Below are positions 1 to 58,321 of a DNA stretch of 64,000 nucleotides, one piece after another. A program made the position numbers and the translations under genes. The notes under the pieces are model-generated. The model saw only the letters and a program-made list of their open reading frames with translations, made no database searches and was not told the DNA's origin. Each line of letters opens with the position of its first letter. The first letter of the stretch is position 1. Source of the DNA: Neopararhizobium haloflavum (GTDB lineage: Bacteria > Pseudomonadota > Alphaproteobacteria > Rhizobiales > Rhizobiaceae); NCBI RefSeq assembly GCF_002750855.1, contig NZ_NWUC01000004.1:124001-188000 (forward strand), in the 5' to 3' direction.

Positions 1-722
1 GCCACCACCGTCACCGCATAGGTTTCGAAGAGGTCGGCTGCCATGCCGGCACAGTCACCGACATTGTCGCCGACATTGTCGGCAATCGTCGCGGGGTTGC
101 GCGGATCATCCTCAGGAATGCCGGCCTCGACCTTGCCGACGAGATCGCCGCCCACGTCGGCCCCCTTGGTGAAGATGCCGCCGCCGAGACGGGCGAAGAT
201 CGAGATCAGGGATGCACCGAAGCCAAGGGCAACGAGGGCATCGATCACCACGCGATCGGATGATTCATATCCCAGTCCACCGGTGAGAATTGCGTAGTAG
301 ACGGAAACGCCCAGCAGAGCGAGACCGGCGACCAGCATGCCGGTGATCGCACCGGACTTGAACGCGATGTCGAGACCGGCCGAAAGGCTGTGCGATGCCG
401 CCTGCGCGGTGCGCACATTGGCGCGGACCGAGACGTGCATGCCGATGAACCCTGCCAGTCCGGACAGTACGGCACCAATCAGGAAGCCGAAGGCTGCGGT
501 TCCTCCCAACAGCCACCATGTGATCGCGAAGACGACCGCGCCGACGATCGCAATCGTAGTGTATTGGCGGGTGAGATAGGCCTGCGCGCCTTCTCGAATA
601 GCGCCCGCAATCTCCTGCATGCGCTCATTGCCCTGGTCAGCTGCCAGCACCGATTGCGTCGCCCAGATGGCATATGCAACCGACAGCAGCCCGCAGGCGA
701 TGACGGCGATAAGAATTGTCAT
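1..722 (-). CDS. hppA: Membrane-bound proton-translocating pyrophosphatase, N-terminal third (partial)
   Basis: Integral membrane pump that couples hydrolysis of pyrophosphate to proton export across the inner membrane. About 240 codons are present; the rest lies before base 1. The frame opens [20 protein letters not shown], a first membrane helix, followed by further hydrophobic spans. Near the window edge it carries the family hallmarks [23 protein letters not shown] and NVGDNVGD, the pyrophosphate and magnesium-binding loops. The start is supported by a strong AGGAGG nine bases before the ATG. The residue that separates potassium-dependent from independent types is not in view. The 160 bases upstream hold its own leader, after the end of the ATP-grasp gene on the same strand. 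Confidence 0.95.
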
Positions 723-882: not shown

Positions 883-1926
883 TCAGAGCGTCGCAAGCGC
901 TCTGTTGGAGATCGTCCGATTGGCGGCATGAACCTCTCGCTTGCGCTCAAGTGCCTCGATCACCGCGCCCGGAAAATCGGCCTCGTACATCTGGCTCATG
1001 CTCCACAAGCCGCCGGGCGTATAGACATTGATCTCGAGGATCTTGTCGCCGACGATATCGAGCCCGACGAGGAACATACCGTCCTGGATCAGTTTGGGGC
1101 GCACCAGTTCGGCAACCTCCAGCATGGTGTCCGTCACCTTGACCTTCTCGGCCGTGCCCTGGACGTGGATGTTGGAACGCACTTCGCCCTTTGCCGGCAC
1201 GCGGCGGAGCGCGGCAAACTTGCCACCAAGCTCCAGCGGCTTGCCGTTCATGACGAACAGGCGGACATCGCCCGACTTGGCCTCGGGAATGTATCCCTGG
1301 GCGATCAGATAGCCTTCGCCGCTCACCGCCTCGAATATCTGGTTGAGGTTGGCATCGGTCGGAGTGTCGACCTTGAAGACATTCTTCCCGCCCGAACCCT
1401 GAAGCGGCTTGACGATAACGCCCTTGGGCTGGTTCTCGATGAATGACTTGATCTCGTCGATGCTCTTGGAGATCAGGGTTTCGGGCCGTACGCGCTCCGG
1501 AAAGCCCTGGAAGTAGAGCTTGTTCTGGGCGAGAGCGAGCCCGTCCGGATCGTTGACGACAAGCACGCCGCGTTCGCTGGCCAGTCGCCCGAACATGGCG
1601 CCGACATGCGCTGCCCACGGCCTTTCGTAAGCGTCATCCGACGGATCGTTGCGCAAAAAGAGAACGTCGAGATCGGCGACGTCGATGGTCTCGATCTTGG
1701 TACCATCGCCGTGAAGGTCCTTGTGCAGGGTCTCCGGCTTCTTGTATTTGGCACGCGGCAGACTGACGGCCCGCACCATCAACGAATCATCCGGGCGCAG
1801 GACGAAATCGCCGGGCGTGACGTAGTATATCTCGTGGCCGCGATTGAGTGCTGCCAATGCCAGCACCGTCGTGGTGAAGTGCGGGGCTTCGCCCTCGATC
1901 GAATTGATAAAAAAAACAATGCGCAT
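883..1926 (-). CDS. GshB-like ATP-grasp ligase (annotated glutathione synthetase)
   Basis: A 347-residue ATP-grasp enzyme of the glutathione synthetase/RimK type. Visible parts are an N-terminal pre-ATP-grasp domain (MRIVFFINSIEGE), the lid and nucleotide segment IVKPLQGSGGKNVF, GDVRLFVMNGKPL, and the metal-binding GLDIVGDKILEINVYTP. Housekeeping GshB usually ends this core with EINVTSP and is about 315 residues long. Here the acceptor-side motif is altered and there is a C-terminal extension. The ATG shares one base with the stop of the DUF1704 gene (TGATG), so the two are translationally coupled. By family it should join a carboxylate to an amine using ATP. Given its partners I infer that the substrate is not simply gamma-glutamylcysteine plus glycine. 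Glutathione synthesis itself remains possible. Confidence 0.85.
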   Translation of the reverse strand: MRIVFFINSIEGEAPHFTTTVLALAALNRGHEIYYVTPGDFVLRPDDSLMVRAVSLPRAKYKKPETLHKDLHGDGTKIETIDVADLDVLFLRNDPSDDAYERPWAAHVGAMFGRLASERGVLVVNDPDGLALAQNKLYFQGFPERVRPETLISKSIDEIKSFIENQPKGVIVKPLQGSGGKNVFKVDTPTDANLNQIFEAVSGEGYLIAQGYIPEAKSGDVRLFVMNGKPLELGGKFAALRRVPAKGEVRSNIHVQGTAEKVKVTDTMLEVAELVRPKLIQDGMFLVGLDIVGDKILEINVYTPGGLWSMSQMYEADFPGAVIEALERKREVHAANRTISNRALATL

Positions 1927-3821
1927 CAGAAGTCCTCGGTTGCGGCCATGTCGACCGGTGACAGTCCGTCCCGCGCACGCTGAAGACGCGCTTCGGCCTG
2001 TGAATGATTGAGAAAGAGCGGTGTGAGGACGGGCGCCTTGAGAAGGCCGCGTTCGCCAAGCTCCTGCATGATGTGAAAATGCGATGCCGCGATCTTGCCC
2101 ATCCAGAAAGGCTCGAGCGCGCCACCGGCTCGCAGGTGATCCAGCACCTGATAAAGGCCACGCAGATAGATCGCGTCCTTTGCAAGCCCTCCGGAGCGAT
2201 GGACGCGGACGCAGATGCCGAAGGCGTCGCGGGCGGAGAAGCCATGCTCCTTGACTAGAAGGTCGTAGACCTCCTGAAAGGCCGCGCCATCGAGCATCGC
2301 CGCGCAGGCAACGACCCTCGCCGCCACAAGACGCAACCGCCGGACAGTCATCCCGCCGACGAGATACTCGGCAAAAACGGCAAGCCCTTCCTGAACACCC
2401 TCATAACCGGCCAGCCCGCTTCGAAAGATCCAGAGACCCTGCGATGAGCCGTTGAAATAGGTCAGGAGATGCACGCCGATCTCGTGACTGAGAAGGGCCT
2501 CGACGCGGTTGCGCAACAGCATCGTATCGCGTGCAATCAGGAGACGCCTGCCCGACACCATGAGCCCGGCCGGCAGATCGTCGCGGAGTTCGATCGTCGC
2601 GTCGAAACCTGGGCAGGCCGCGTTGTAACGCTCGATCATCTTCGCTGCTGCGCTTGCGACATGGTGGCAATCGACGTGATCCACCGGCTCGCTCGTTCCA
2701 CCGGCCTGCGCCTCCGTTTCGCGTAGAATTGCGTGGGCAGCGCGTTGCAAGCTGGAGCGAACCGAACCGTAAAGCGCCCGTCCGACCTCGCGAAACCGCG
2801 GCGTGTCGCGCGCGGCAAGCATGGTCAGCTGCAGGTCCAACTCCTGCTGTTTCTCGCGATAGAGAGCATGAAGGACCGGGTCCTCGAAATGATCGAACGG
2901 GATGGAGAAGAGCCGCCTCTTCGCTTCGTCGATGCGGATCGTGAGCGGTCGATAGAGCAACCGTGGCTCACGCTGATATCCTCCCGACTGAAACTCCTGC
3001 CAGGCCGCAGCGGAATTGATCGGTGTCGCCGCGAGGAGAAAATCAAACATCGACGCGATCTCGTCGATGCTGCGGTCGGCACTGCGTACCGCGTCGACAA
3101 ACACCTGGCGTCCGAGCGCGCGATGGGTGGTCAGCTTCAGATGCGATGCCTGTTCGATGAATGCGGCGATCGCCTTGAGGCCAGCGTCGTAGATGTTCGC
3201 CACGACCCGCTCACGAAGGGCCGGATAGATGCCACCGTCGCCGGGGGTCCGGTAGATCGGCGCGAAGCTTACGGAGAGACAGACGAAGCGCGTCAGGGAA
3301 CTGAGCGACTGACCACCTTTCCCCTCCTCGCTCGCGCAGCGTTCGATGCGTGGCGAGCGGAACTTCGCCTTGACCGCCTCGGCCGCGCTCTCGAAGGCAT
3401 CGGCCGCGGCCTGGGCGGCGGGTGCCCGAGGCGCTGAAAGGATGATCTCGAAGGGAGGCAGATATGGCGCGTCGTCGGTCAGGAGCGCGTCTTGACCCAA
3501 TTCGTCTACGCTGAGGACAATGAAGGCTCCGAACCGCTCGGCCATGGCACCGCCGATTACGTCGATTACCTCCGCCGCTCGCTCGATGCTGCCGGCAACG
3601 ACATAGGATGCGTTTGCCATGGCGATCTGGCGGGCCGCGTCCGCCGCGTGCTCACCCATCACATGGACACACACGAAGGGTACGGGCCGATCGACATGGA
3701 CGCGGCCGCCGTCCTCAAGTTCCAGGCGGACTGGCTTGCCGGACTTCAACCCTTCTTCCAACGCATCGCGCCAAGCTTCGTCCACGCGGGCCGGCCGGCC
3801 ATCATCAGGTCGCGCACTCAT
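1926..3821 (-). CDS. DUF1704/MATCAP-family metallopeptidase (QEGLA-motif protein)
   Basis: A 631-residue protein of the family usually called 'flavohemoglobin expression-modulating QEGLA motif protein'. An N-terminal domain (residues 1 to about 190) precedes a long helical linker and a C-terminal catalytic domain. That domain holds HEIGVH at residues 446-451 (an HExxxH zinc motif) and, 26 residues on, QEGLAVFAE (477-485) with a candidate third zinc ligand. The same architecture occurs in the eukaryotic MATCAP tyrosine carboxypeptidases, so a carboxypeptidase-like cleavage is the best prediction. It overlaps the upstream amidohydrolase gene by four bases (ATGA) and the downstream ATP-grasp gene by one. 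No signal peptide or membrane span is evident, so it is probably cytoplasmic. The substrate is unknown. Confidence 0.88.
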   Translation of the reverse strand: MSARPDDGRPARVDEAWRDALEEGLKSGKPVRLELEDGGRVHVDRPVPFVCVHVMGEHAADAARQIAMANASYVVAGSIERAAEVIDVIGGAMAERFGAFIVLSVDELGQDALLTDDAPYLPPFEIILSAPRAPAAQAAADAFESAAEAVKAKFRSPRIERCASEEGKGGQSLSSLTRFVCLSVSFAPIYRTPGDGGIYPALRERVVANIYDAGLKAIAAFIEQASHLKLTTHRALGRQVFVDAVRSADRSIDEIASMFDFLLAATPINSAAAWQEFQSGGYQREPRLLYRPLTIRIDEAKRRLFSIPFDHFEDPVLHALYREKQQELDLQLTMLAARDTPRFREVGRALYGSVRSSLQRAAHAILRETEAQAGGTSEPVDHVDCHHVASAAAKMIERYNAACPGFDATIELRDDLPAGLMVSGRRLLIARDTMLLRNRVEALLSHEIGVHLLTYFNGSSQGLWIFRSGLAGYEGVQEGLAVFAEYLVGGMTVRRLRLVAARVVACAAMLDGAAFQEVYDLLVKEHGFSARDAFGICVRVHRSGGLAKDAIYLRGLYQVLDHLRAGGALEPFWMGKIAASHFHIMQELGERGLLKAPVLTPLFLNHSQAEARLQRARDGLSPVDMAATEDF

Positions 3822-4684
3822 TGCGAACCCAAAGCTTGCTCCAGCACCGGCAGCGACGTGCGGATCATCTGGCGCAGATCATCGAGAACGACCCGGTCCG
3901 GCTGCCCCGTCCATTCGTCCATGAACATTTTCTTGAATTCGATGGCGATGGCGCAGCCCGTGGTCGGAAAGTTGGTGTGCACGAATCGCGTCTGCTCTCC
4001 CTTGCCCTGGAACGCCACGTTTTCCCGGACATCGGGCGCGCGTCCGGCCAGGCGAGACGACCGCAAGTGCTCGATGAAGGGATCGACGACGCCTGCCCAG
4101 CGCGCCCGATCCATGGAGAACGTGCCGATGTTGATTTCCGGGGCTTCGACTTCGTCCCTCGGCGGCGCGTCGGGTCCATCGCGGCGATGATTGTAGCTGT
4201 GAATGTCGAGCAGGACGAAGTGGCCGTGACGGCGCTGCATCCGCTCCAGAGTGAAGCGCAACATGGCGTAATATTCATCGTAGGATGACAGCGACGCCTC
4301 GACTTCGGAAGCCGACGGCTGCTCCTTCCAGACCTTGAGGCCCCATGATTGCTCGGGGCGCACATAGATCGCCTCGTCGCGCGCCCTGTTCAGGTCGAAC
4401 TCGAACCTGGAATGGTGGCAGATGATCCGATTGGGGACATCGCGCGTAGTGTACTCTGTGAAGGGATCCTCTTCGCGAAGGCGGTCCTGCTCGCCAAGCG
4501 CCAAATCGTCGGCGACCTCCGGGCGGACCGCATGCCCATTGTGGATGGCGGTCGCGATAACGGGCGCTTCGCCGGTATGGATGGTCCACCAATCTCCCGC
4601 TTCATGCGGTAGTCCGACGTCATCGCCGGGGTCGTTTGCTACGTGTATGGTCAATTCGCTGTCCTCGCTTGCGCCTTGCAGCAT
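3818..4684 (-). CDS. N-formylglutamate amidohydrolase-family protein
   Basis: A 288-residue member of the HutG-like N-formylglutamate amidohydrolase family, which hydrolyses N-acyl or amide bonds on glutamate-type substrates. Recognisable segments are HNGH (48-51), EEDPFTE (71-77), SRFEFDLNRAR (92-102) and LDIHSYNHR (158-166), where the histidines and acidic residues are expected to bind metal. It is not next to histidine-utilisation genes, so a role in histidine breakdown is unlikely. It is the first gene of the three-gene cassette and overlaps the DUF1704 start by four bases. The chosen ATG lacks a clear Shine-Dalgarno and follows an in-frame stop. No promoter is obvious in the 80 bases after the MFS gene, so it may be read through from that operon. 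Confidence 0.85.
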   Translation of the reverse strand: MLQGASEDSELTIHVANDPGDDVGLPHEAGDWWTIHTGEAPVIATAIHNGHAVRPEVADDLALGEQDRLREEDPFTEYTTRDVPNRIICHHSRFEFDLNRARDEAIYVRPEQSWGLKVWKEQPSASEVEASLSSYDEYYAMLRFTLERMQRRHGHFVLLDIHSYNHRRDGPDAPPRDEVEAPEINIGTFSMDRARWAGVVDPFIEHLRSSRLAGRAPDVRENVAFQGKGEQTRFVHTNFPTTGCAIAIEFKKMFMDEWTGQPDRVVLDDLRQMIRTSLPVLEQALGSQ

Positions 4685-4764
4685 CTAGCGGCTGCATTGG
4701 GCGCCTTGGAAACGGAGGACGAGAGTCGACAGTTCCGCGATCGAACGTCACGGATTGTGAACAA

Positions 4765-6021
4765 TCACTGCCCGTGAAGGCGTTTATCCGCGGCAACCTG
4801 CAATGCCAGAACCAGGAGGCAGGCACCGGCGACCGGCCAGACGAGGAAAGCGAGACTCTCCCAGCCCCACACATTGAGGACCACGCCGGATGCCAGCGAC
4901 GCGAGCGCCACAAGCGAGAAAAGGACCGTGTCGTGGAAGCCCTGCACCTTGTTCTTTTCCGACGGCCTGTAGGTCGCAGTCACCATTGCCGTCGAACCGA
5001 TGAAGCCGAAGTTCCAGCCAAGACCGAGAAGTATCAGCGAAAGCCAGAAGTTCCATAGCTCGATGCCGGCATAGGCGACGGCGGCGCAGATGATGAGGAT
5101 AACCAGACCCGTCGATACGACCGCCGTCTGTCCGAAGCGCACGATCAACCGCCCCGTGAAGAAGCTCGGCGCGAACATCGCCATCACGTGCCATTGGATG
5201 CCGAGCGTCGCGAGGTCCGGCGAGAAGCCGCAGGCGACCATGGCGAGAGGCGCGCCGGTCATCAGGAACGTCATGAGCGTGTAGGAGCCGACACTGCATG
5301 TCAGAGCCGTGAGGAAGCGACGCTGGGATACGATCTCGACAAGTGGTCGTGCCGGGCTTTCCGCCTCGTCGGACGCATCGCCCGCGACAGCTTCCGGAAT
5401 CCTTAGGAAGGAAAGGATGATCATTCCGATGAGGCCGAGCGCGATCAGGGCGACATAGACACCGGCAAAGGGCACGGTCGGGAAAGCCTGTCGGGTGAAG
5501 ATCACCGTTTGCGGCCCGATGATCGCGGCAAAGACGCCGCCGGCCAGCACCCAGGAGATGGCCTTGGGCTTGAAGGATGGCGGCGCGCCATCGGCAGCGG
5601 CAAAGCGATATTGCTGAACGAATGCCCCGCCGATCCCGACGATGAGCAGACCGAAGGCGAAGAACCAGAATTCATGCATGAAGAGTGCCAGCGCAGCCAG
5701 CCCTCCGCCGATGCCAGTGACGGCAGCGCCGCTCATGAATCCCAGCCGGCGGCCGACGCCGCGCATGATCCAGGCGGCGCCAAGGGCGCCGATCGCCAAC
5801 CCCACGTTGAAACCGGTGACAGGCGCCGTCGCCAGGGACTTGTCTGTGCTCAGGAGATAATCGCCGGCCAGCCCGCCCATCGATATGCTGATCGGGGCGG
5901 CCGCGCCGACGACGGCCTGCGCGGCACACAGGACAAGCGCGTTGCGCTTGGCTAGCGATCGCCCGACGCTGCCGGTCCGCAGCCGGTCGCCGGTCTCGAC
6001 GTTGGCCGCGGCATCCGTCAT
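4765..6021 (-). CDS. MFS transporter, last gene of the riboflavin operon
   Basis: A 418-residue protein with about twelve hydrophobic spans, a short polar N-terminus and a central polar loop (around residues 210-230, acidic, rich in Glu, Ala and Asp). It is a member of the major facilitator superfamily. Its substrate cannot be told from sequence. The start overlaps the nusB stop by four bases (ATGA), so it is made together with the glyA-nrdR-ribDEH-nusB series. That placement makes a flavin or a metabolite linked to this operon a reasonable guess, but only a guess. Most family members export or import small organic compounds by proton exchange. Confidence 0.85.
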
Positions 6022-6560
6022 TCGTCGCGGCCGGACTTCTTGATCCGGCCGCTGGCGGGCCTCGTTTCGGGACGATAGCGCCGCGCGAGACGATCGAGTA
6101 CGGCGTTGACGATTTTCGGTTCCTCGCCCTCATAGAAGGCGCGGGCAATATCGACGTACTCGGTGACGATCACGGCGATTGGCACGTCCTTGCGCTCCGA
6201 CAATTCCAGCGTGCCGGCGCGCAGGATGGCCCGCAGCGTGGAATCAAGGCGCGAGAGCGGCCAGTCCATGGTCAATGCAGACGCTATGATCGGGTCGAGA
6301 CGGCGCTGACCGGCGACGACGCCGGAAACGATCGAGCGGAACCAGGCCGCATCAGCCTGACGGTAGGTTTCGCCATCGATCTCCCGGCCAAGGCGATGGG
6401 TCTCGTATTCGGCCACGACCTCGGTCAAGCCCGTGCCGCCGACGTCCATCTGATAGAGCGCCTGAACGGCAGCGAGCCGTGCGGCACCGCGCTGGTTCGC
6501 CGGCTTGACCTCGGGCTCTCTCGGCGCTTCCCCGCCGCTGTGCGTTTCGTCTGTGCTCAC
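6018..6560 (-). CDS. nusB: Transcription antitermination factor NusB
   Basis: A 180-residue all-helical RNA-binding protein that acts with NusE (S10) at boxA sites to prevent premature termination, mainly in rRNA operons. The core is clear: [14 protein letters not shown] near residue 27, [16 protein letters not shown], the [15 protein letters not shown] helix and the closing [12 protein letters not shown]. The N-terminal 25 residues and the basic C-terminal tail are extensions common in alphaproteobacterial NusB. It overlaps ribH by four bases upstream and the MFS gene by four bases downstream, so it lies in a translationally coupled chain. The ribH-nusB pairing is widespread in bacteria. Confidence 0.95.
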
Positions 6561-7015
6561 TTGTCGTTCAGCCTGTTCTTCATGGCGATCATGGTGAGAG
6601 CGGCACGCGCCGCAAAGCCTCCTTTGTCCTTGTCATCCTGGCGCGCGCGCGCCCATGCCTGCGCTTCGTTCTCGACCGTCAGGATGCCGTTGCCGATCGC
6701 AAGCGATTCGCTGACCGCAAGGTCGGTCAGCGCCCGGCACGACTCGTTGGCGACGATCTCGAAATGGTAGGTCTCGCCGCGGATGACGGTGCCAAGAGCG
6801 ACGTAGCCGTCGTATCGCTCCCCGCCTTCGTCTTCAGCATCGAGCGCCATGGCGATCGTCGCCGGAATTTCGAGAGCACCCGGCACGGTGACGACATCAT
6901 AGCTGGCGCCTGCCTTGTCCAGCGCTGCCTTGGCGCCCGCCAGAAGCGCATCGGACAAATCATCATAAAAACGTGCTTCGACGACCAACACATGCGTTCT
7001 TGACGTTTTCGCCAT
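6557..7015 (-). CDS. ribH: 6,7-dimethyl-8-ribityllumazine synthase
   Basis: Penultimate enzyme of riboflavin synthesis. It condenses the ribityl-aminouracil intermediate with 3,4-dihydroxy-2-butanone 4-phosphate and usually assembles as a hollow icosahedral or decameric complex in the cytoplasm. The 152-residue protein shows [11 protein letters not shown] and [14 protein letters not shown], where the histidine is the catalytic base region. I start it at [17 protein letters not shown] because an AAAGGACC element lies just upstream. An in-frame extension of 27 residues before it is unlike the family. The gap of about 115 bases before ribE holds no recognisable riboswitch. The stop overlaps nusB. 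Confidence 0.94.
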
Positions 7016-7129
7016 GACGATACGGTCCTTTCCGGGGGACGACGGGCGGCTCTGGGGTGTGGCGCGGGACAAACCACGCCGATACGCCGATGGCAAGCAG
7101 TTTCGCGCCCGACCGGGCCGATCCGCGCT

Positions 7130-7741
7130 TTATCGTGGCGCAAATTCGGCAAGGCGCGCGGCATAGCGAGCCATTTGGTCAATCTCAAGATTGACCCGAT
7201 CACCAGTTCGGCGCTCACCCCATGTGGTAGCTTCAAGCGAGTGCCGGATGAGGAGCACGTCGAACCGCGAGCCTTCGACACCATTGACCGTCAGCGACGT
7301 GCCATCCAGCGAGATGGATCCCTTTCGGGCGATGAAGGGAGCAAGACTGTCTGGCGCCTCAATGAGAAAGCGGGCCGCCTCTCCCTCGCCCGTGACGGAA
7401 ATGATCGTGGCGGTGGCATCGACGTGACCGGAAACGAGGTGCCCACCCAGTTCGTCACCGATTTTAAGCGATCGTTCGAGATTGACCCGTGTGCCCGCTC
7501 GCCATGTGCCGATCGTGGTCAGGCGTAGCGCCTCTTCCCAGGCCTCGACCTCGAACCAGGCTTCGTTCGGCCCGTTGTCGGGAAGGGCCGTCACCGTCAG
7601 ACAAGGGCCGCCACACGCAATTGACGCTCCGATGTCGATGGTATCGGTATCGTAGCTCGTCGCCATGCGAATGCGAACGCCGCCGGCGACCGGGGTGATG
7701 GCCGAGACCGCGCCAACGTCCGTAACGATACCCGTGAACAT
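7130..7741 (-). CDS. ribE: Riboflavin synthase alpha subunit
   Basis: Final enzyme of riboflavin synthesis. It dismutates two molecules of ribityllumazine to riboflavin and the aminouracil precursor. The 203-residue protein opens with the family signature [12 protein letters not shown] and has two tandem lumazine-binding repeats. The second begins around residue 97 with GGHLVSGHVDATA, and its SLTVNGVEG matches the first repeat's CLTVTAL. The start codon shares one base with the ribD stop (TGATG). It sits in the order ribD-ribE-ribH, as in many alphaproteobacteria, with the ribBA function presumably elsewhere. In some nomenclatures this gene is called ribC. Confidence 0.95.
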   Translation of the reverse strand: MFTGIVTDVGAVSAITPVAGGVRIRMATSYDTDTIDIGASIACGGPCLTVTALPDNGPNEAWFEVEAWEEALRLTTIGTWRAGTRVNLERSLKIGDELGGHLVSGHVDATATIISVTGEGEAARFLIEAPDSLAPFIARKGSISLDGTSLTVNGVEGSRFDVLLIRHSLEATTWGERRTGDRVNLEIDQMARYAARLAEFAPR

Positions 7742-8853
7742 CAGCGCTGCCTCTCCAGTTCGATGAAATCGTCCGGCCCGTAGCGCGCGCTTCGGACGCA
7801 GCGGAAGCCATGCAGAGGGGAGGACGCCGTGAAGGGCGCGTCGATGCCTTCCGCGCCAATCGAGCCTGAACCGGTAAACAGAGCGATCCTGTCGACGAGA
7901 TCGTCACGCAGGAAAGCGGCAGCAATTGCGCCTCCTCCCTCCACGAGAAGCGTCGCTATCCCTCGCGCGCTCAGGTCGTCCAGAAGTTCCGGCAACGCGA
8001 TGCGGCCGTTGTGCTGCGCGCAGGCGATGAATTCGACACCGTCCTCCCGCAGCGTCTTCTGCGCCGCCCGGTCTGCCGTGGTCGCAACAAGCAGCGGCAC
8101 CTGCCGGCTCGATCGGACCAGACGTGACGTCCGCGCAAGGCGTATCTCGTCGTCAAGCACGATGCGCATCGGCGAACGCTCCTCGAGGCCGGGAAGCCTG
8201 CAGGTCAATTCGGGATCGTCTTCCAATGCGGTGCCGATGCCGATGAGGATGGCATCGCTCTCGCTGCGCAGGAGATGCGACTGGCGACGTGCGATATCAG
8301 CGGTGATGGCGATCTGCCCCGCGCCTCGTCGACCAATTTTGGCGTCGGCAGAAATTGCAAGCTTCAGCGTGACATGCGGGCGACTTCTCGTCCTTTGCAT
8401 GAGATAGCCGGCCAGGGCGTGCTCGGATTGGCGGGACAAAACGCCAGATACCGTCTCAACACCGGCGGCCTCGAGGATGGCAAATCCCTTGCCCATAACA
8501 CGGTGGTCCGGGTCCATGGTGGCCGCGACCAGACGCCGGATGCCGGAACGGGCAAGCGCTTCGGCGCACGGTGGCGTGCGGCCATGGTGGGCGCAGGGCT
8601 CCAGCGTGACATAGGCGGTCGCCCCCCTCGCCCGCTCACCCGCCTCGCCAAGCGCTTCCGCCTCGGCATGCGGCCGACCGCCACGCGCCGTTATCCCGCG
8701 TCCGACGATGTGCGGTCCGGCGCCATCGTCGCGGACAATCAGCGTCGCGACGGAAGGATTCGATCCGGTCAGCCCGCTGTGGCGCAGCGAAAATCGGATC
8801 GCGGCTGCCATGAAGCGGCGATCCACATCGCCCGCCTTGCTGTCGTCAGCCAT
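7741..8853 (-). CDS. ribD: Bifunctional riboflavin-biosynthesis deaminase/reductase RibD
   Basis: Carries out the deamination and side-chain reduction steps that follow GTP cyclohydrolase II. The N-terminal cytidine-deaminase-like domain shows the zinc site HAEAEAL and [11 protein letters not shown] (His plus two Cys). The C-terminal half is a dihydrofolate-reductase-like NADPH domain ([14 protein letters not shown], and [14 protein letters not shown] near the end). I choose the third possible methionine (MADDSKAGD), which reduces overlap with nrdR to a few bases. Starting six residues earlier is also possible. Total length of about 370 residues fits the family. It is coupled to ribE downstream. 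Confidence 0.94.
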
Positions 8854-9331
8854 TTCGCTCATGCCCGGCATCGCCGTTTATCTGAGCGCTCAACTCAGCG
8901 ATGACCTTTTCGAAGTCCTCGGCGCCGCTGAAATCGCGGTAGACCGAGGCGTAGCGCACGAAAGCCACGTCATCGAGGGCCTTCAGCGCCTCGATGACCA
9001 TCAGACCGATCTGTTCCGAGGGCACGTCCTGCTCGCCCGAACTTTCGAGCCGGCGAACGATGCCGGAGACGGCCCGCTCGATCCGTTCCCGGTCGACAGG
9101 CCGTTTGCGCAGCGCGATCTCGAACGAGCGCATGAGCTTGTCGCGGTCGAAGGGCACCCGCCGTCCGGTCTTCTTGAGGACCGTCAGTTCGCGCAGTTGC
9201 ACTCGCTCGAATGTGGTGAATCGTCCGCCGCAATTGGGACAGACGCGCCGCCGACGGATGGCGGTACCATCCTCGGCGGGACGCGAATCCTTGACCTGGC
9301 TGTCTTCCGACGAACAGTAGGGGCAGCGCAT
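8846..9331 (-). CDS. nrdR: Transcriptional repressor NrdR
   Basis: A 161-residue repressor of ribonucleotide reductase genes. The N-terminal zinc ribbon is clear: [17 protein letters not shown], then [17 protein letters not shown], giving four cysteines in two CxxC pairs. The following ATP-cone domain (from [16 protein letters not shown]) senses ATP/dATP and sets oligomer state and DNA binding at NrdR boxes. It begins seven bases after the glyA stop and is followed by ribD with a short overlap. The glyA-nrdR-ribD order is conserved across many Hyphomicrobiales. Its own targets cannot be seen here because no nrd operon lies in the window. Confidence 0.96.
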
Positions 9332-9338
9332 CCTGCAA

Positions 9339-10658
9339 CTAACCGAGATGCGGGTAGAGCGGGAAGCGGTCCGTGAGGGCGACGACCTTTTCCTTCACCG
9401 CCTGTTCGACCTGGGCGTTGCCCTCATCGGAATTGGCAACCTTGAGGCCGTCCAGGACTTCCACGATCAATTCGCCGATTTCCCGGAACTCGGCGGCACC
9501 AAAACCGCGCGTCGTTCCTGCCGGCGTGCCGAGGCGGATGCCGGATGTCACGAAGGGCTTTTCGGGGTCGAACGGAATGCCGTTCTTGTTGCAGGTGATA
9601 AAGGCACGGCCGAGACCGGCCTCGGCGCGCTTGCCGGTCGCGTTCTTCTTGCGCAGATCGACCAGCATCAGATGGTTGTCCGTTCCGCCCGAGACGATGT
9701 CGAGACCATTGTCGACCAGCGTCTTGGCCAGAACCTTGGCATTGGCGGCGACATTGGCGGCATAATCCTTGAAGCCCGGCGTCAGCGCCTCGCCGAAGGC
9801 AACGGCCTTGGCGGCGATGACATGCATGAGCGGACCGCCCTGCAGGCCTGGAAAGACGGCCGAGTTGATCTTCTTGGCAACGTCCTCGTCGTTGGTCAGG
9901 ATCAGGCCGCCGCGTGGGCCGCGCAAGGACTTGTGCGTCGTCGACGTCACGACATGGGCATGGGGCACCGGCGAAGGGTGCACGCCTCCGGCGACAAGAC
10001 CGGCAATGTGGGCCATATCGACCATCAGCCAGGCGCCCACCGCATCTGCGATCTCACGGAACCGCTTCCAGTCCCACACGCGCGAATAGGCCGTGCCGCC
10101 GGCCAGAATGAGCTTCGGCTTGTGCTCGTGGGCGAGCCGCTCGACCTCGTCCATGTCGAGCAGATTGTCGTCTTCCCTCACGCCGTAGGAGACGACATTG
10201 AACCACTTGCCGGACATGTTGACGGGCGAGCCGTGGGTGAGGTGCCCACCGGAATTCAGATCGAGCCCCATGAAGGTGTCACCCGGTTTCAGCAACGCAA
10301 GGAAGACCGCCTGGTTCATCTGGCTGCCGGAGTTCGGCTGAACGTTTGCGAAGCCTGCGCCGAAGAGTTCCTTCGCACGGTCGATGGCCAGCTGTTCGGC
10401 CACGTCGACGAACTGGCAACCGCCATAATAACGCTTGCCGGGGTATCCCTCGGCATATTTGTTCGTCATGACCGAGCCCTGCGCGTCCAGAACGGCACGC
10501 GAGACGATGTTTTCGGATGCGATCAACTCGATCTCGTGGCGCTGGCGCCCAAGTTCCTTGGTGATGGCGCCGAAGATCTCGGGGTCGGCTTCCGAGAGAG
10601 GACGATTGAAGAATGCATCGGAGAAACGCGTGGCCGAAGCCGAAGAAGCGTTGGACAT
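9339..10658 (-). CDS. glyA: Serine hydroxymethyltransferase
   Basis: A pyridoxal-phosphate enzyme that interconverts serine and glycine while moving a one-carbon unit to tetrahydrofolate. It feeds purines, thymidylate and methionine. The 439-residue protein carries the [11 protein letters not shown] substrate segment near residue 40, the [11 protein letters not shown] loop, and the cofactor lysine in [12 protein letters not shown]. An AAGGAC element lies before the ATG. It heads the minus-strand run that continues through nrdR, the rib genes and nusB. The 103 bases between it and the AraC gene contain its probable promoter, with no riboswitch I can recognise. Confidence 0.97.
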
Positions 10659-10761
10659 GGGCTCAGTCCTTTTTCGATTTGGCGTGGCGCCGTCTTAGCG
10701 CCGAGTATCCTCAAGGGCAATAACCGGTTCGCCATCTGCCATGCGTCGCGAGGGCGCGGGA

Positions 10762-11649
10762 TCAGGCCGCTCTTGGTCCAGTATGGCCGAGGCGGTAGCT
10801 TTTGCGGAAGTCGCGCGGCGTCATCGCTCGACGCGATTTGAAGATCCGGTTGAACAAAGCGAGATTGGCAAAGCCGACATCCCCGGCGATCACGCGGATC
10901 GGTCGTTCCGTGCCAATGAGCAGCGAGCAGGCGTGACCGATACGAAGCTGTGTCAGATATTCGAGCGGTGTCAGGCGCGTGTGGCGGCGAAACATGCGAT
11001 GAAGCGCAGATTCACTCATACAGGCGAGCGCGGCGAGATCGCCGACAGCGATCGGCTCGGTGTGACGGGTATGGAGATGCTGCAGCACCCTTTCGATACG
11101 CGGCTCGCCGATGCTCGACGCAGGCGGCATCTGATGGCGCGGGCTGGCAAGCGGTGTACGATGCACATCCCGCGTCAACTGGGCCAGGACGGCGAGCAAG
11201 CGGACCAGCCGCTGATCTGCCGGCAGTTCCGGCAAGGCTTCAAGGTCGGGGCGGACTTCAGCCGCCGTCTTCTTGGAGAAACGCACAGCCCGCCCGGCTT
11301 CGGCAAGCAATGCATTCAATGCGTTGAACTCGACGAAGAGTTCGATCAGCGACGCGGCCCACTCCTTGGTGAACTGCACGACAATGGCGCGGTGCGGGCC
11401 GGTGGCATCCAGCGTCCCGCTGGACGCCCAACTATGGGCAAGACCCGGCCCGAGCAGCACCAGATCCTCGTTCGCATAGGATCCGATATGGTCGCCGACA
11501 TAGCGGTGCCCGCGACTGTTCAGCGTCAAAGTCAATTCAAACTCGGGATGATGATGCCACTCGAAGGGGATACCGTCATCGAGGCGCCTGTCGAGAAATG
11601 CCCAAGACGCCCCATCGGACTGCCTGATCTTTTCGAGAAACGGTTTCAA
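10762..11649 (-). CDS. AraC-family transcriptional regulator
   Basis: An N-terminal cupin-type sensing domain (EWHHHPEFELTLTL, then VGDHIGSYANEDLVLLGPGLAHSW) joins a C-terminal double helix-turn-helix (AVGDLAALACMSESALHRMF and the SLLIGTERPIRVIAGDVGFA region). There is no in-frame ATG at the front. I place the start at a TTG preceded by GGTGG, just before KPFLEKIRQSDG. A TTG 63 bases further up is open but adds a cysteine-rich stretch that looks non-coding. It is divergent from the phytanoyl-CoA-dioxygenase-like gene across a short intergenic region, so it probably controls that gene and itself. The histidine cluster in the cupin suggests a small ligand, not identified. Confidence 0.85.
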   Translation of the reverse strand: MKPFLEKIRQSDGASWAFLDRRLDDGIPFEWHHHPEFELTLTLNSRGHRYVGDHIGSYANEDLVLLGPGLAHSWASSGTLDATGPHRAIVVQFTKEWAASLIELFVEFNALNALLAEAGRAVRFSKKTAAEVRPDLEALPELPADQRLVRLLAVLAQLTRDVHRTPLASPRHQMPPASSIGEPRIERVLQHLHTRHTEPIAVGDLAALACMSESALHRMFRRHTRLTPLEYLTQLRIGHACSLLIGTERPIRVIAGDVGFANLALFNRIFKSRRAMTPRDFRKSYRLGHTGPRAA

Positions 11650-57337: not shown

Positions 57338-58321
57338 CTAGAGCCAACCGCGCCTCTTGAAGAAAAGATAGGGAATGACGGCAGATACTACCATCAACGC
57401 CAAAGCATATGGATAACCCAATCTCCAGCTCAATTCCGGCATGAACTCGAAATTCATGCCATAGACAGAAGCGACAAGCGTCGGCGGCAGAAAAATAACG
57501 GCAGCAACCGAAAAGATCTTGATGATTGCGTTCTGCTCGATGGAAATCATGCCCAATGTCGCATCGAGCAAGAAGGTGATCTTTTGCGATAGGAATGATG
57601 CATGATCGATCAATGAGGTGACGTCACGAGACAGCGTCTTGATGCGTGCACGGGTATCCTTGTCTGCCTTCTTTTGCACCGCGACATTCGCCAGAAAGCT
57701 GAACAGCCGGTCGAAGGTGGCAAGGCTGTCGCGGATGATCGACAAGAGATCGGCGCGGCGCCCGATCTGCCGCAGCACGCTTTGAAAGTCGCGCCCCTTT
57801 GCCGGGCCAGTCGTCGCCTTCGGGAAGATGTCGCGGGAGATGGTATCGACGCCCTGACCGGCCAGTTCGAGGATATCGGCGATGCGGTCGACCACCGCAT
57901 CGAGAAGGCCCGCGAGAACCGACAAGCCATCGTGGCATCCGTTGCTCATCCTGCTCGTGCGCTGGACATAAGCTTGGAATGCGCGCGGCTCATGATAACG
58001 CACAGTGATCAGCCGCTCCCCGGACAGAACGAAGCTCACCGGAAGGATGTCGGGATTGTCGACATCGTTGAGCGCCGGCAGCATAGCCGTCATGAATGCC
58101 GCGGTTTCGTCGGTATAGAGACGGCTGGAGGTTTCGATCTCCTCCATCTCATCGCGTGTCGGTATGTCGACCGCCAGCGCCGCCTTGATCGCAGCGTCCT
58201 CTTCAGCCGTGGGGCTGTCCAGATCGATCCAGACGCCACGGCGCAAGGTTTCGGCTGACGGCATGGCGTCGCTGTCCACCGCACGGAGTTTGCCCTCGGC
58301 CACCTCGTATACTGTGATCAT
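57338..58321 (-). CDS. corA: CorA-family magnesium transporter
   Basis: A 327-residue channel protein that takes up magnesium and related divalent ions as a pentamer. The large cytoplasmic N-terminal funnel and long stalk helix are followed by two C-terminal membrane spans. The first ends in the signature YGMNFEFMPEL and the second in VVSAVIPYLFFKRRGWL. I start at MITVYEVAEGKLRA, since GGAGAGGAACG precedes it; eight further codons upstream are open. It follows holC after 33 bases. Confidence 0.92.
   Translation of the reverse strand: MITVYEVAEGKLRAVDSDAMPSAETLRRGVWIDLDSPTAEEDAAIKAALAVDIPTRDEMEEIETSSRLYTDETAAFMTAMLPALNDVDNPDILPVSFVLSGERLITVRYHEPRAFQAYVQRTSRMSNGCHDGLSVLAGLLDAVVDRIADILELAGQGVDTISRDIFPKATTGPAKGRDFQSVLRQIGRRADLLSIIRDSLATFDRLFSFLANVAVQKKADKDTRARIKTLSRDVTSLIDHASFLSQKITFLLDATLGMISIEQNAIIKIFSVAAVIFLPPTLVASVYGMNFEFMPELSWRLGYPYALALMVVSAVIPYLFFKRRGWL

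What the first reader, a model, noticed from the sequence alone, without database searches (positions are those of the whole stretch)
883..4684. Three-gene amidohydrolase / MATCAP-like peptidase / ATP-grasp ligase cassette of unknown purpose
Seen: three genes overlap by four bases and one base (ATGA, TGATG), so they are coupled. Known: the families are N-formylglutamate amidohydrolase, DUF1704/MATCAP (zinc HExxxH carboxypeptidase in eukaryotes) and GshB/RimK-type ATP-grasp ligase. Comparative genomics has noted ATP-grasp ligases next to peptidases as possible peptide-tagging or metabolite systems. Inference: the cassette adds (ligase) and removes (carboxypeptidase, amidohydrolase) a small amino-acid unit on an unknown protein tail, peptide or metabolite. 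Routine annotation as glutathione synthesis and flavohaemoglobin modulation hides this.
Basis: partly seen in the sequence, partly recalled or inferred. Interest (0 to 1): 0.78.

Follow-up and report, generated by a model that had tools for sequence, protein, structure and literature searches.

The report
Conserved ligase-hydrolase cassette linked to osmotic stress
Three coupled bacterial genes, an enzyme that makes an amide bond and two zinc enzymes that look built to cut one, are kept together in many bacterial groups and in several of them sit beside genes for salt and pressure stress, which suggests an undescribed peptide cycle hidden behind the label glutathione synthesis.

Summary
In detail: FGase (4684-3818), long DUF1704/MATCAP (3821-1926) and a GshB-like ATP-grasp ligase (1926-883) overlap by 4 and 1 bases. 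The cassette is conserved: 15 of 16 loci with an NF009110 ligase (398 genomes of the window's phylum) have DUF1704 beside it; 77 of the best 80 DUF1704 loci, from ten phyla, keep FGase-DUF1704-ligase order. FGase and DUF1704 are fused in six of the 15; the window's DUF1704 carries a dead FGase-like domain. Canonical gshA and gshB lie elsewhere, so this is not the genome's glutathione synthetase. New: the cassette lies within 10 kb of MscS channels (9 of 22 genomes) and CorA transporters (5 of 22) more often than chance; MscS repeated in 4 of 14 fresh Planctomycetota genomes (expected 0.29). In Photobacterium damselae a 'GshB' and an adjacent-tag 'QEGLA' gene rise 38- and 27-fold at low salinity. 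Best reading: a cytosolic ligase/hydrolase cycle on a small, probably acidic, peptide-type amide serving ion or osmotic adjustment. The substrate is unknown, and the osmotic link is absent at the window's own locus and weak in its kin.

The parts
3818..4684 (-). FGase: N-formylglutamate-amidohydrolase-family zinc hydrolase (288 aa), first gene
   Evidence: PF05013 88 bits; HutG model TIGR02017 only 35 of 278.75 bits. H48, E71, E72, D73, R93, D97, N99, R100, D160, H162 and E249 are invariant in 55 aligned rows
3818..3821 (-). 4-base ATGA overlap of FGase stop and DUF1704 start
   Evidence: the same overlap in 61 of 78 related loci by nearest start
1926..3821 (-). Long DUF1704/MATCAP-family protein (631 aa), second gene
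   Evidence: PF08014 and TIGR02421
3102..3821 (-). N-terminal ~240 residues of the DUF1704 protein: degenerate FGase-like domain without the catalytic residues
   Evidence: hhalign with the FGase family 94.6%, E 7e-8 for the single comparison, over 129 columns matching the C-terminal half of FGase; three unrelated control pairs near 0.1%. An earlier test with few sequences gave 57.4%. Catalytic H, E, H, E replaced in 8 of 8 rows of this type. No Pfam match to this part
1971..2999 (-). MATCAP catalytic domain (residues 275-617)
   Evidence: profile hit to MATCAP structures 7z5g and 7z6s, E 1.8e-14 and 2.1e-13
2469..2486 (-). HEIGVH (residues 446-451), HExxxH zinc motif
   Evidence: read; H446, E447, H451 in 81 of 81 aligned rows
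2379..2393 (-). QEGLA (residues 477-481); E478 is the expected third zinc ligand
   Evidence: read; Q477, E478, G479 in 81 of 81 rows; aligned with the EGLA of MATCAP
883..1926 (-). GshB-like ATP-grasp ligase of subfamily NF009110/PRK12458 (347 aa), third gene, 1-base overlap
   Evidence: 459.7 bits, cut-off 408; 33 positions shared with 17 canonical gshB rows, including K136, K173, R222, R242, R250, N252, D290, E298, N300

Best explanation
The cassette encodes one cytosolic enzymatic cycle. The ATP-grasp enzyme joins an amino acid to a carboxyl group by a GshB/RimK-type acyl-phosphate reaction. The MATCAP-type zinc carboxypeptidase removes that C-terminal unit again. The FGase-type zinc amidohydrolase removes an N-acyl (or glutamyl) group at the other end. 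FGase and DUF1704 probably act as one physical unit: they are fused, or translationally coupled, with a dead FGase copy kept as a domain. The substrate is most likely a small, acidic peptide-type metabolite, possibly glutamyl and N-acylated, and the system serves adjustment to osmotic downshift or ion imbalance. Shown here: the genes, the catalytic residues, the coupling, the fusion, the co-occurrence and the neighbour enrichment. From one paper: strong induction at low salinity of what look like the Photobacterium equivalents. Inferred: the directions of the reactions, the substrate, the complex and the osmotic role.
For: Co-occurrence: 15 of 16 NF009110 loci in 398 genomes have DUF1704 beside them; the sixteenth starts at a contig edge. 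Order kept in 77 of the best 80 DUF1704 loci. DUF1704 adjacent in 12 of 14 further Planctomycetota genomes. FGase-DUF1704 fusion in six of the 15 loci and in Photobacterium sp. DA100. One further long DUF1704 stands beside an AstE/AspA-type deacylase instead of FGase (L079). MscS within 10 kb of the cassette in 9 of 22 genomes, expected 0.60; CorA in 5 of 22, expected 0.17. Fresh set: MscS in 4 of 14, expected 0.29, P 1.5e-4. rloABC-type genes follow the ligase in four Magnetococcales-type loci; rlo is needed for hypo-osmotic growth of Pseudomonas aeruginosa (PMC12239564, passages). Photobacterium damselae at 1% NaCl: 'GshB' RS17020 up 38.42-fold, 'QEGLA' RS17025 up 27.51-fold, RimK up 52.24-fold (PMC10308900, passages). 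Genes for glutamate modification incl. K05844, a mechanosensitive channel (K03282) and a magnesium uptake system (K03284) are more frequent in brackish than marine lineages (PMC10219603, passages).
Against: No osmotic-type gene lies next to the window's own cassette: its CorA is about 53 kb away and its two MscS genes are on other contigs. In the window's kin neighbours vary: ABC transporter parts were the commonest family (9 of 103 neighbour proteins scanned, of 173 picked), and MscS hits of the in-house profile lie in only 4 of 53 loci (L082-L132, L143, L150), more than 3 kb away. MscS and CorA also lie together elsewhere in these genomes, so they are not two independent signals. The MscS link was first seen in the loci that gave the strongest P. 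Vibrio sp. HDW18 keeps the fused hydrolase without a ligase at that locus; G304 has lost the FGase catalytic residues; ligases without DUF1704 on their contig exist (G549:C120, G417:C20). No substrate is known, and ligase and hydrolases in one operon would make a futile cycle unless regulated. P. damselae itself was not read; the match rests on annotation, adjacent tags and Photobacterium sp. DA100.
Confidence: 0.42

Rival explanations
1. Protein-tail tag cycle, as tubulin tyrosine ligase and MATCAP do in eukaryotes: the ligase adds, and DUF1704 removes, a C-terminal residue on a protein, perhaps a channel encoded nearby. FGase trims a modified end.
For: DUF1704 is the family of human MATCAP/TMCP, which removes amino acids from tubulin tails (PMC10499314, passages). 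HExxxH and the third-ligand E are kept in 14 of 14 rows of A1, and MATCAP structures are hit. RimK/RimB is a bacterial ligase/peptidase pair on a protein tail (PMC12239564, passages).
Against: No partner protein of 60 aa or more is conserved across phyla; a small secreted protein recurs in 3 of 58 loci only. MscS and CorA are absent from most loci. The FGase family acts on small N-acyl amino acids (family knowledge).
Confidence: 0.2
2. A second glutathione-type enzyme: the ligase makes glutathione or a close thiol or gamma-glutamyl peptide, for instance as a ligand that gates Kef-type potassium efflux, and the two hydrolases recycle it.
For: 33 positions are shared with canonical gshB; both cassette types share a residue unlike the canonical one at only three well-kept positions, 138, 208 and 305. 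Kef-like antiporters with a TrkA-N domain lie beside two loci (L161, L079). In the midpoint-rooted drawing type B ligases stand next to canonical gshB; the true root is unknown.
Against: Below the glutathione synthase cut-offs (TIGR01380 199.3 of 299.05; PRK05246 212.8 of 272). Type A, type B and canonical gshB rows each fall on one side of a branch (support 100, 99, 98; 53, 7 and 17 rows). The genome has canonical gshA and gshB. No gshA in the cassette. Tandem ligase copies fall in distinct clades.
Confidence: 0.17
3. Catabolic or salvage cassette: FGase and DUF1704 break down N-acyl peptides taken up from outside, and the ligase stores or recycles the released amino acid.
For: Two hydrolases, variable neighbours with ABC transporters in the window's kin; hydrolase kept without ligase at the Vibrio sp. 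HDW18 locus.
Against: No conserved uptake system seen among the families tallied; a cassette-type ligase lies within 2.5 kb downstream in all of the best 80 loci by script, though L157 is rearranged, and it is multiplied in some (L144, L156, L161, G461); strong induction by salt in Photobacterium.
Confidence: 0.12
4. Amino-group carrier pathway like LysW/LysX/LysK: the ligase loads an amino acid on a small carrier protein and DUF1704 releases the product.
For: Ligase plus carboxypeptidase logic (recalled from the lysine pathway).
Against: No conserved small gene of 60 aa or more beside the cassette across phyla and almost no space between its genes; carriers under 60 aa elsewhere in the loci were not searched for.
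Confidence: 0.04

Closest known systems
RimK/RimB (bacterial alpha-glutamate ligase and retropepsin)
   Same: ATP-grasp ligase coded beside a peptidase that undoes it; RimK rises with the cassette-like genes in low salt
   Different: Different ATP-grasp subfamily (TIGR00768 78 of 143.4 bits); zinc carboxypeptidase and FGase instead of an aspartic protease
rloABC operon (retropepsin, inactive transglutaminase 7TM, ATP-grasp)
   Same: Hypo-osmotic role in P. aeruginosa; lies directly behind the cassette ligase in four Magnetococcales-type loci
   Different: Not seen at the window locus; other hydrolase types; membrane and periplasmic parts
Tubulin tyrosine ligase / MATCAP cycle
   Same: ATP-grasp type ligase (recalled for TTL) opposed by a DUF1704-family zinc carboxypeptidase
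   Different: Bacterial genes in one operon with FGase; no tubulin-like target known; kinship to MATCAP is distant (profile E 1.8e-14)
NAAG cycle (RIMKL ligase, GCPII carboxypeptidase, aspartoacylase), recalled
   Same: The same three chemistries: ligase, C-terminal exopeptidase, N-acyl-amino-acid hydrolase; one DUF1704 locus even has an AstE/AspA-type enzyme (L079)
   Different: Different families for the ligase and the exopeptidase (recalled); product unknown
Canonical glutathione synthetase GshB
   Same: ATP-grasp motifs and 33 shared positions; best solved relative 1gsa
   Different: Below curated cut-offs; separate group; a canonical copy exists elsewhere in the genome

Membership tests
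GshB (glutathione synthase equivalog) | Score over TIGR01380 or PRK05246 cut-off | tested here: not met
   199.3 of 299.05 and 212.8 of 272 bits
GshB (glutathione synthase equivalog) | Only GshB of the genome | tested here: not met
   Canonical copy at C30:222151-223074 and a gshA-type gene at C31:75429-76361
GshB (glutathione synthase equivalog) | Makes glutathione | not testable with these tools
   needs enzyme assay
NF009110/PRK12458 ligase subfamily | Score over curated cut-off | tested here: met
   459.7 bits, cut-off 408
HutG N-formylglutamate deformylase | Score over TIGR02017 cut-off | tested here: not met
   35 of 278.75 bits
FGase Pfam family PF05013 | Score over gathering cut-off | tested here: met
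   88 bits, cut-off 28.9
MATCAP/DUF1704 PF08014 | Profile score, HExxxH and third-ligand E | tested here: met
   314.8 bits; H446, E447, H451, E478 in 81 of 81 rows
MATCAP/DUF1704 PF08014 | Carboxypeptidase activity on a C-terminal tail | not testable with these tools
RimK/RimB system | RimK-family ligase with retropepsin | tested here: not met
   TIGR00768 78 of 143.4; no match of the in-house retropepsin profile in the 19 kb around the window cassette (L078)
LysW-type carrier system | Small acidic carrier protein gene nearby | tested here: inconclusive
   No conserved ORF of 60 aa or more across phyla; shorter ones not searched
NAGGN dipeptide osmolyte system | Amidotransferase and acetyltransferase-ATP-grasp genes | not tested
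   considered from memory only

The most novel reading that the evidence does not exclude
Many bacterial phyla carry an undescribed osmotic-downshift system in which a GshB-like ligase packs acidic amino acids into a small capped peptide and a MATCAP/FGase hydrolase unit unpacks it, lowering or restoring the count of osmotically active molecules together with MscS and CorA; the MATCAP detyrosinase of animals would descend from this kind of enzyme.
Probability: 0.2. Interest if true: 0.85.

Novelty: new variant of a known kind. Interest (0 to 1): 0.62.

Why it matters
If right, a widely annotated 'glutathione synthase' and 'flavohemoglobin expression-modulating' pair is really part of a conserved three-enzyme cycle with a role in salt or turgor stress. 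Transcriptome studies may have misread it as glutathione metabolism, as the Photobacterium study discussed it. It would give bacterial DUF1704 a function and MATCAP an evolutionary context, and it names a clear place to look for an unknown metabolite.

Tried and rejected
A scan of viral contigs gave one fragment, so there is no sign of a phage system. Stand-alone DUF1704 genes: in 16 neighbourhoods of 12 kb a six-frame search found DUF1704 in 16 of 16 and no cassette-type ligase, only one weak RimK-like match at the edge of L166 (32 bits), and no MscS or CorA match; they look like a separate, solo group. Glutathione synthesis alone was rejected as the main reading. A LysR (HdfR-like) regulator beside 8 of 19 loci is partly the hdfR-maoP pair of gammaproteobacteria (the E. 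coli pair is recalled), so it was not used as evidence. Papers: no held paper has two of ATP-grasp, DUF1704 and N-formylglutamate amidohydrolase; one paper holds DUF1704 and one QEGLA; the search joining KIAA0895L, ATP-grasp, MATCAP and N-formylglutamate gave only the TMCP paper. The 2009 survey of amidoligases by Iyer and colleagues is not held (its entry was seen in a reference list); it may have noted this neighbourhood, so no claim of first notice is made. S. meliloti gene numbers recalled from memory gave no paper.

Two contigs that might have added MscS neighbours to L133 and L145 proved to be other contigs by their length, so the 9 of 22 stands.
Full report
OBSERVATION. The window holds three genes on the - strand in the order FGase, DUF1704, ATP-grasp, with overlaps of 4 bases and 1 base exactly as described. 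Family scores are clear. The FGase is not HutG (35 of 278.75 bits), and the ligase is subfamily NF009110 (459.7, cut-off 408), below the cut-offs of true glutathione synthase.

CONSERVATION. In 398 genomes of the window's phylum (Pseudomonadota, inferred from named relatives) PF08014 occurs in 47 and NF009110 over its cut-off in 14 genomes, 16 loci. In 15 of these 16 a DUF1704 gene is adjacent; the sixteenth (G109) begins 48 bases from a contig end. An FGase is fused or within about 3 kb in 12 of those 15; two of the other three (G113:C47, G173) are cut by contig ends, and none was found at G113:C16. Of these 80, 77 have FGase and ligase in order within 2.5 kb on the same strand by script; in L153, L157 and L159 no FGase was found upstream, L153 being at a contig edge and L157 rearranged; L150 is counted though its genes are split. 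They come from ten phyla: Pseudomonadota, Myxococcota (L157 only, not in order), Campylobacterota, Calditrichota, Planctomycetota, Acidobacteriota, Gemmatimonadota, Verrucomicrobiota, Poribacteria and Bacteroidota. In 392 genomes of the phylum of G415 (Planctomycetota), NF009110 is over the cut-off in 16; of the 14 not seen before, 12 have DUF1704 beside it; in G682 and G595 it is on other contigs, in G595 with both genes at contig ends.

ARCHITECTURE. Two forms exist. Type A (window) has a separate FGase and a long DUF1704, mostly 600-700 aa. Type B has one protein with FGase fused to DUF1704, the ligase gene upstream. The N-terminal part of type A DUF1704 is itself FGase-like: hhalign 94.6%, E 7e-8 for one comparison, three control pairs near 0.1%; a first test with few sequences gave only 57.4%. 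Its catalytic H, E, H and E are gone in 8 of 8 type A rows and kept in 5 of 6 type B rows; G304 lost the last two of them at least. HExxxH and the third-ligand E are kept in 14 of 14. This argues that FGase and DUF1704 work as a unit. In one further locus (L079) a long DUF1704 stands beside an AstE/AspA-type deacylase instead of FGase.

LIGASE. In a tree of 77 rows type A (53), type B (7) and canonical gshB (17) each fall on one side of a branch (support 100, 99, 98); with no outgroup it cannot tell which two are closest (which replaces). They share 33 positions, and at 138, 208 and 305 both cassette types carry one residue unlike the canonical one: the chemistry looks intact, and the substrate may be related. 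Tandem ligase copies in L144, L156 and L161 fall partly in distinct clades, and Winogradskyella L160 carries a type A and a type B ligase, which suggests more than one ligation step in some species (inference).

GLUTATHIONE. The genome has another gshB and a gshA-type gene, so the cassette is not needed for ordinary glutathione synthesis.

CONTEXT. Clustering of neighbours in 58 loci showed MscS-type channels and CorA transporters beside cassettes of distant phyla, confirmed by Pfam for those scanned. In the Phycisphaerae locus L156 the order is FGase, DUF1704, three ligases, MscS, CorA, the MscS gene overlapping the last ligase by 4 bases. Small MscS-like genes follow the ligase in Luteimonas and the fusion in G304. 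Statistics with whole-genome copy numbers: 16 loci of the window's phylum, MscS within 10 kb in 5 (expected 0.34) and CorA in 3 (expected 0.07) (four of the five MscS cases are in families f48 and f58, whose ligases group together). In 22 genomes of other loci, MscS in 9 (expected 0.60) and CorA in 5 (expected 0.17). These sets include the loci in which the link was first seen. In 14 fresh Planctomycetota genomes MscS is near in 4 (expected 0.29, P 1.5e-4). MscS and CorA also lie together elsewhere in these genomes, so they count as one signal. In the window's own genome the link is absent and in its kin it is weak: 4 of 53 loci, more than 3 kb away. In four Magnetococcales-type loci the rloABC-type genes follow the ligase.

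EXPRESSION AND LITERATURE. In P. aeruginosa rlo genes control hypo-osmotic tolerance (PMC12239564, passages). In P. damselae at 1% NaCl 'GshB' RS17020 rises 38.42-fold, 'QEGLA' RS17025 27.51-fold and RimK 52.24-fold; the authors discuss the first as glutathione synthetase (PMC10308900, passages). That this pair is a type B cassette is inferred from adjacent tags and from Photobacterium sp. DA100, where ligase and fusion overlap. Brackish lineages carry more glutamate-modifying enzymes, a mechanosensitive channel and a magnesium uptake gene than marine ones (PMC10219603, passages). MATCAP/TMCP enzymes remove amino acids from tubulin tails (PMC10499314, passages).

EXCEPTIONS. Vibrio sp. HDW18 keeps the fused hydrolase without a ligase at that locus. 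G549:C120 and G417:C20 have ligases without DUF1704 on the contig, and G682:C310 has a sub-cut-off ligase directly behind an MscS gene.

READING. Solid: a conserved three-enzyme cassette that is not the genome's glutathione synthetase. Likely: FGase and DUF1704 act together and oppose the ligase. Plausible: an osmotic or ion role. Open: the substrate.

Noticed in passing
L079 (G093:C24), 8158-11110: Long DUF1704 beside an AstE/AspA-type deacylase, with a Kef-like antiporter and an MscS gene nearby; no NF009110-type ligase seen there.
   Followed up: partly
L156, 9920-13155; L161, 9851-14941; G461:C57:3595-6733: Two or three cassette-type ligases in tandem, in L156 and L161 partly of distinct clades.
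   Followed up: partly
L188 (G682:C310), 4487-9364: A large MscS gene directly followed by a lone ligase related to the cassette ligase (309.6 bits with the in-house profile), no DUF1704 seen there.
   Followed up: no
L068, L071, L074: Small secreted-looking proteins of 90-124 aa near three cassettes; of the two scanned, no Pfam match over a cut-off.
   Followed up: no
L150 (Rhizobium sp. RCAM05350 plasmid): All three cassette genes are split into more than one frame; left in pieces.
   Followed up: no
window 1-722, - strand: Start of a gene that looks like a membrane proton-pumping pyrophosphatase (recognised by eye, no family search).
   Followed up: no
window 57353-58237, - strand: The genome's only CorA match lies in the window but about 53 kb from the cassette.
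   Followed up: no
genomes of families f44, f46, f53, f76: Stand-alone DUF1704 genes of about 390-430 aa and more form a separate group without the ligase in the 16 neighbourhoods read; function unknown.
   Followed up: partly
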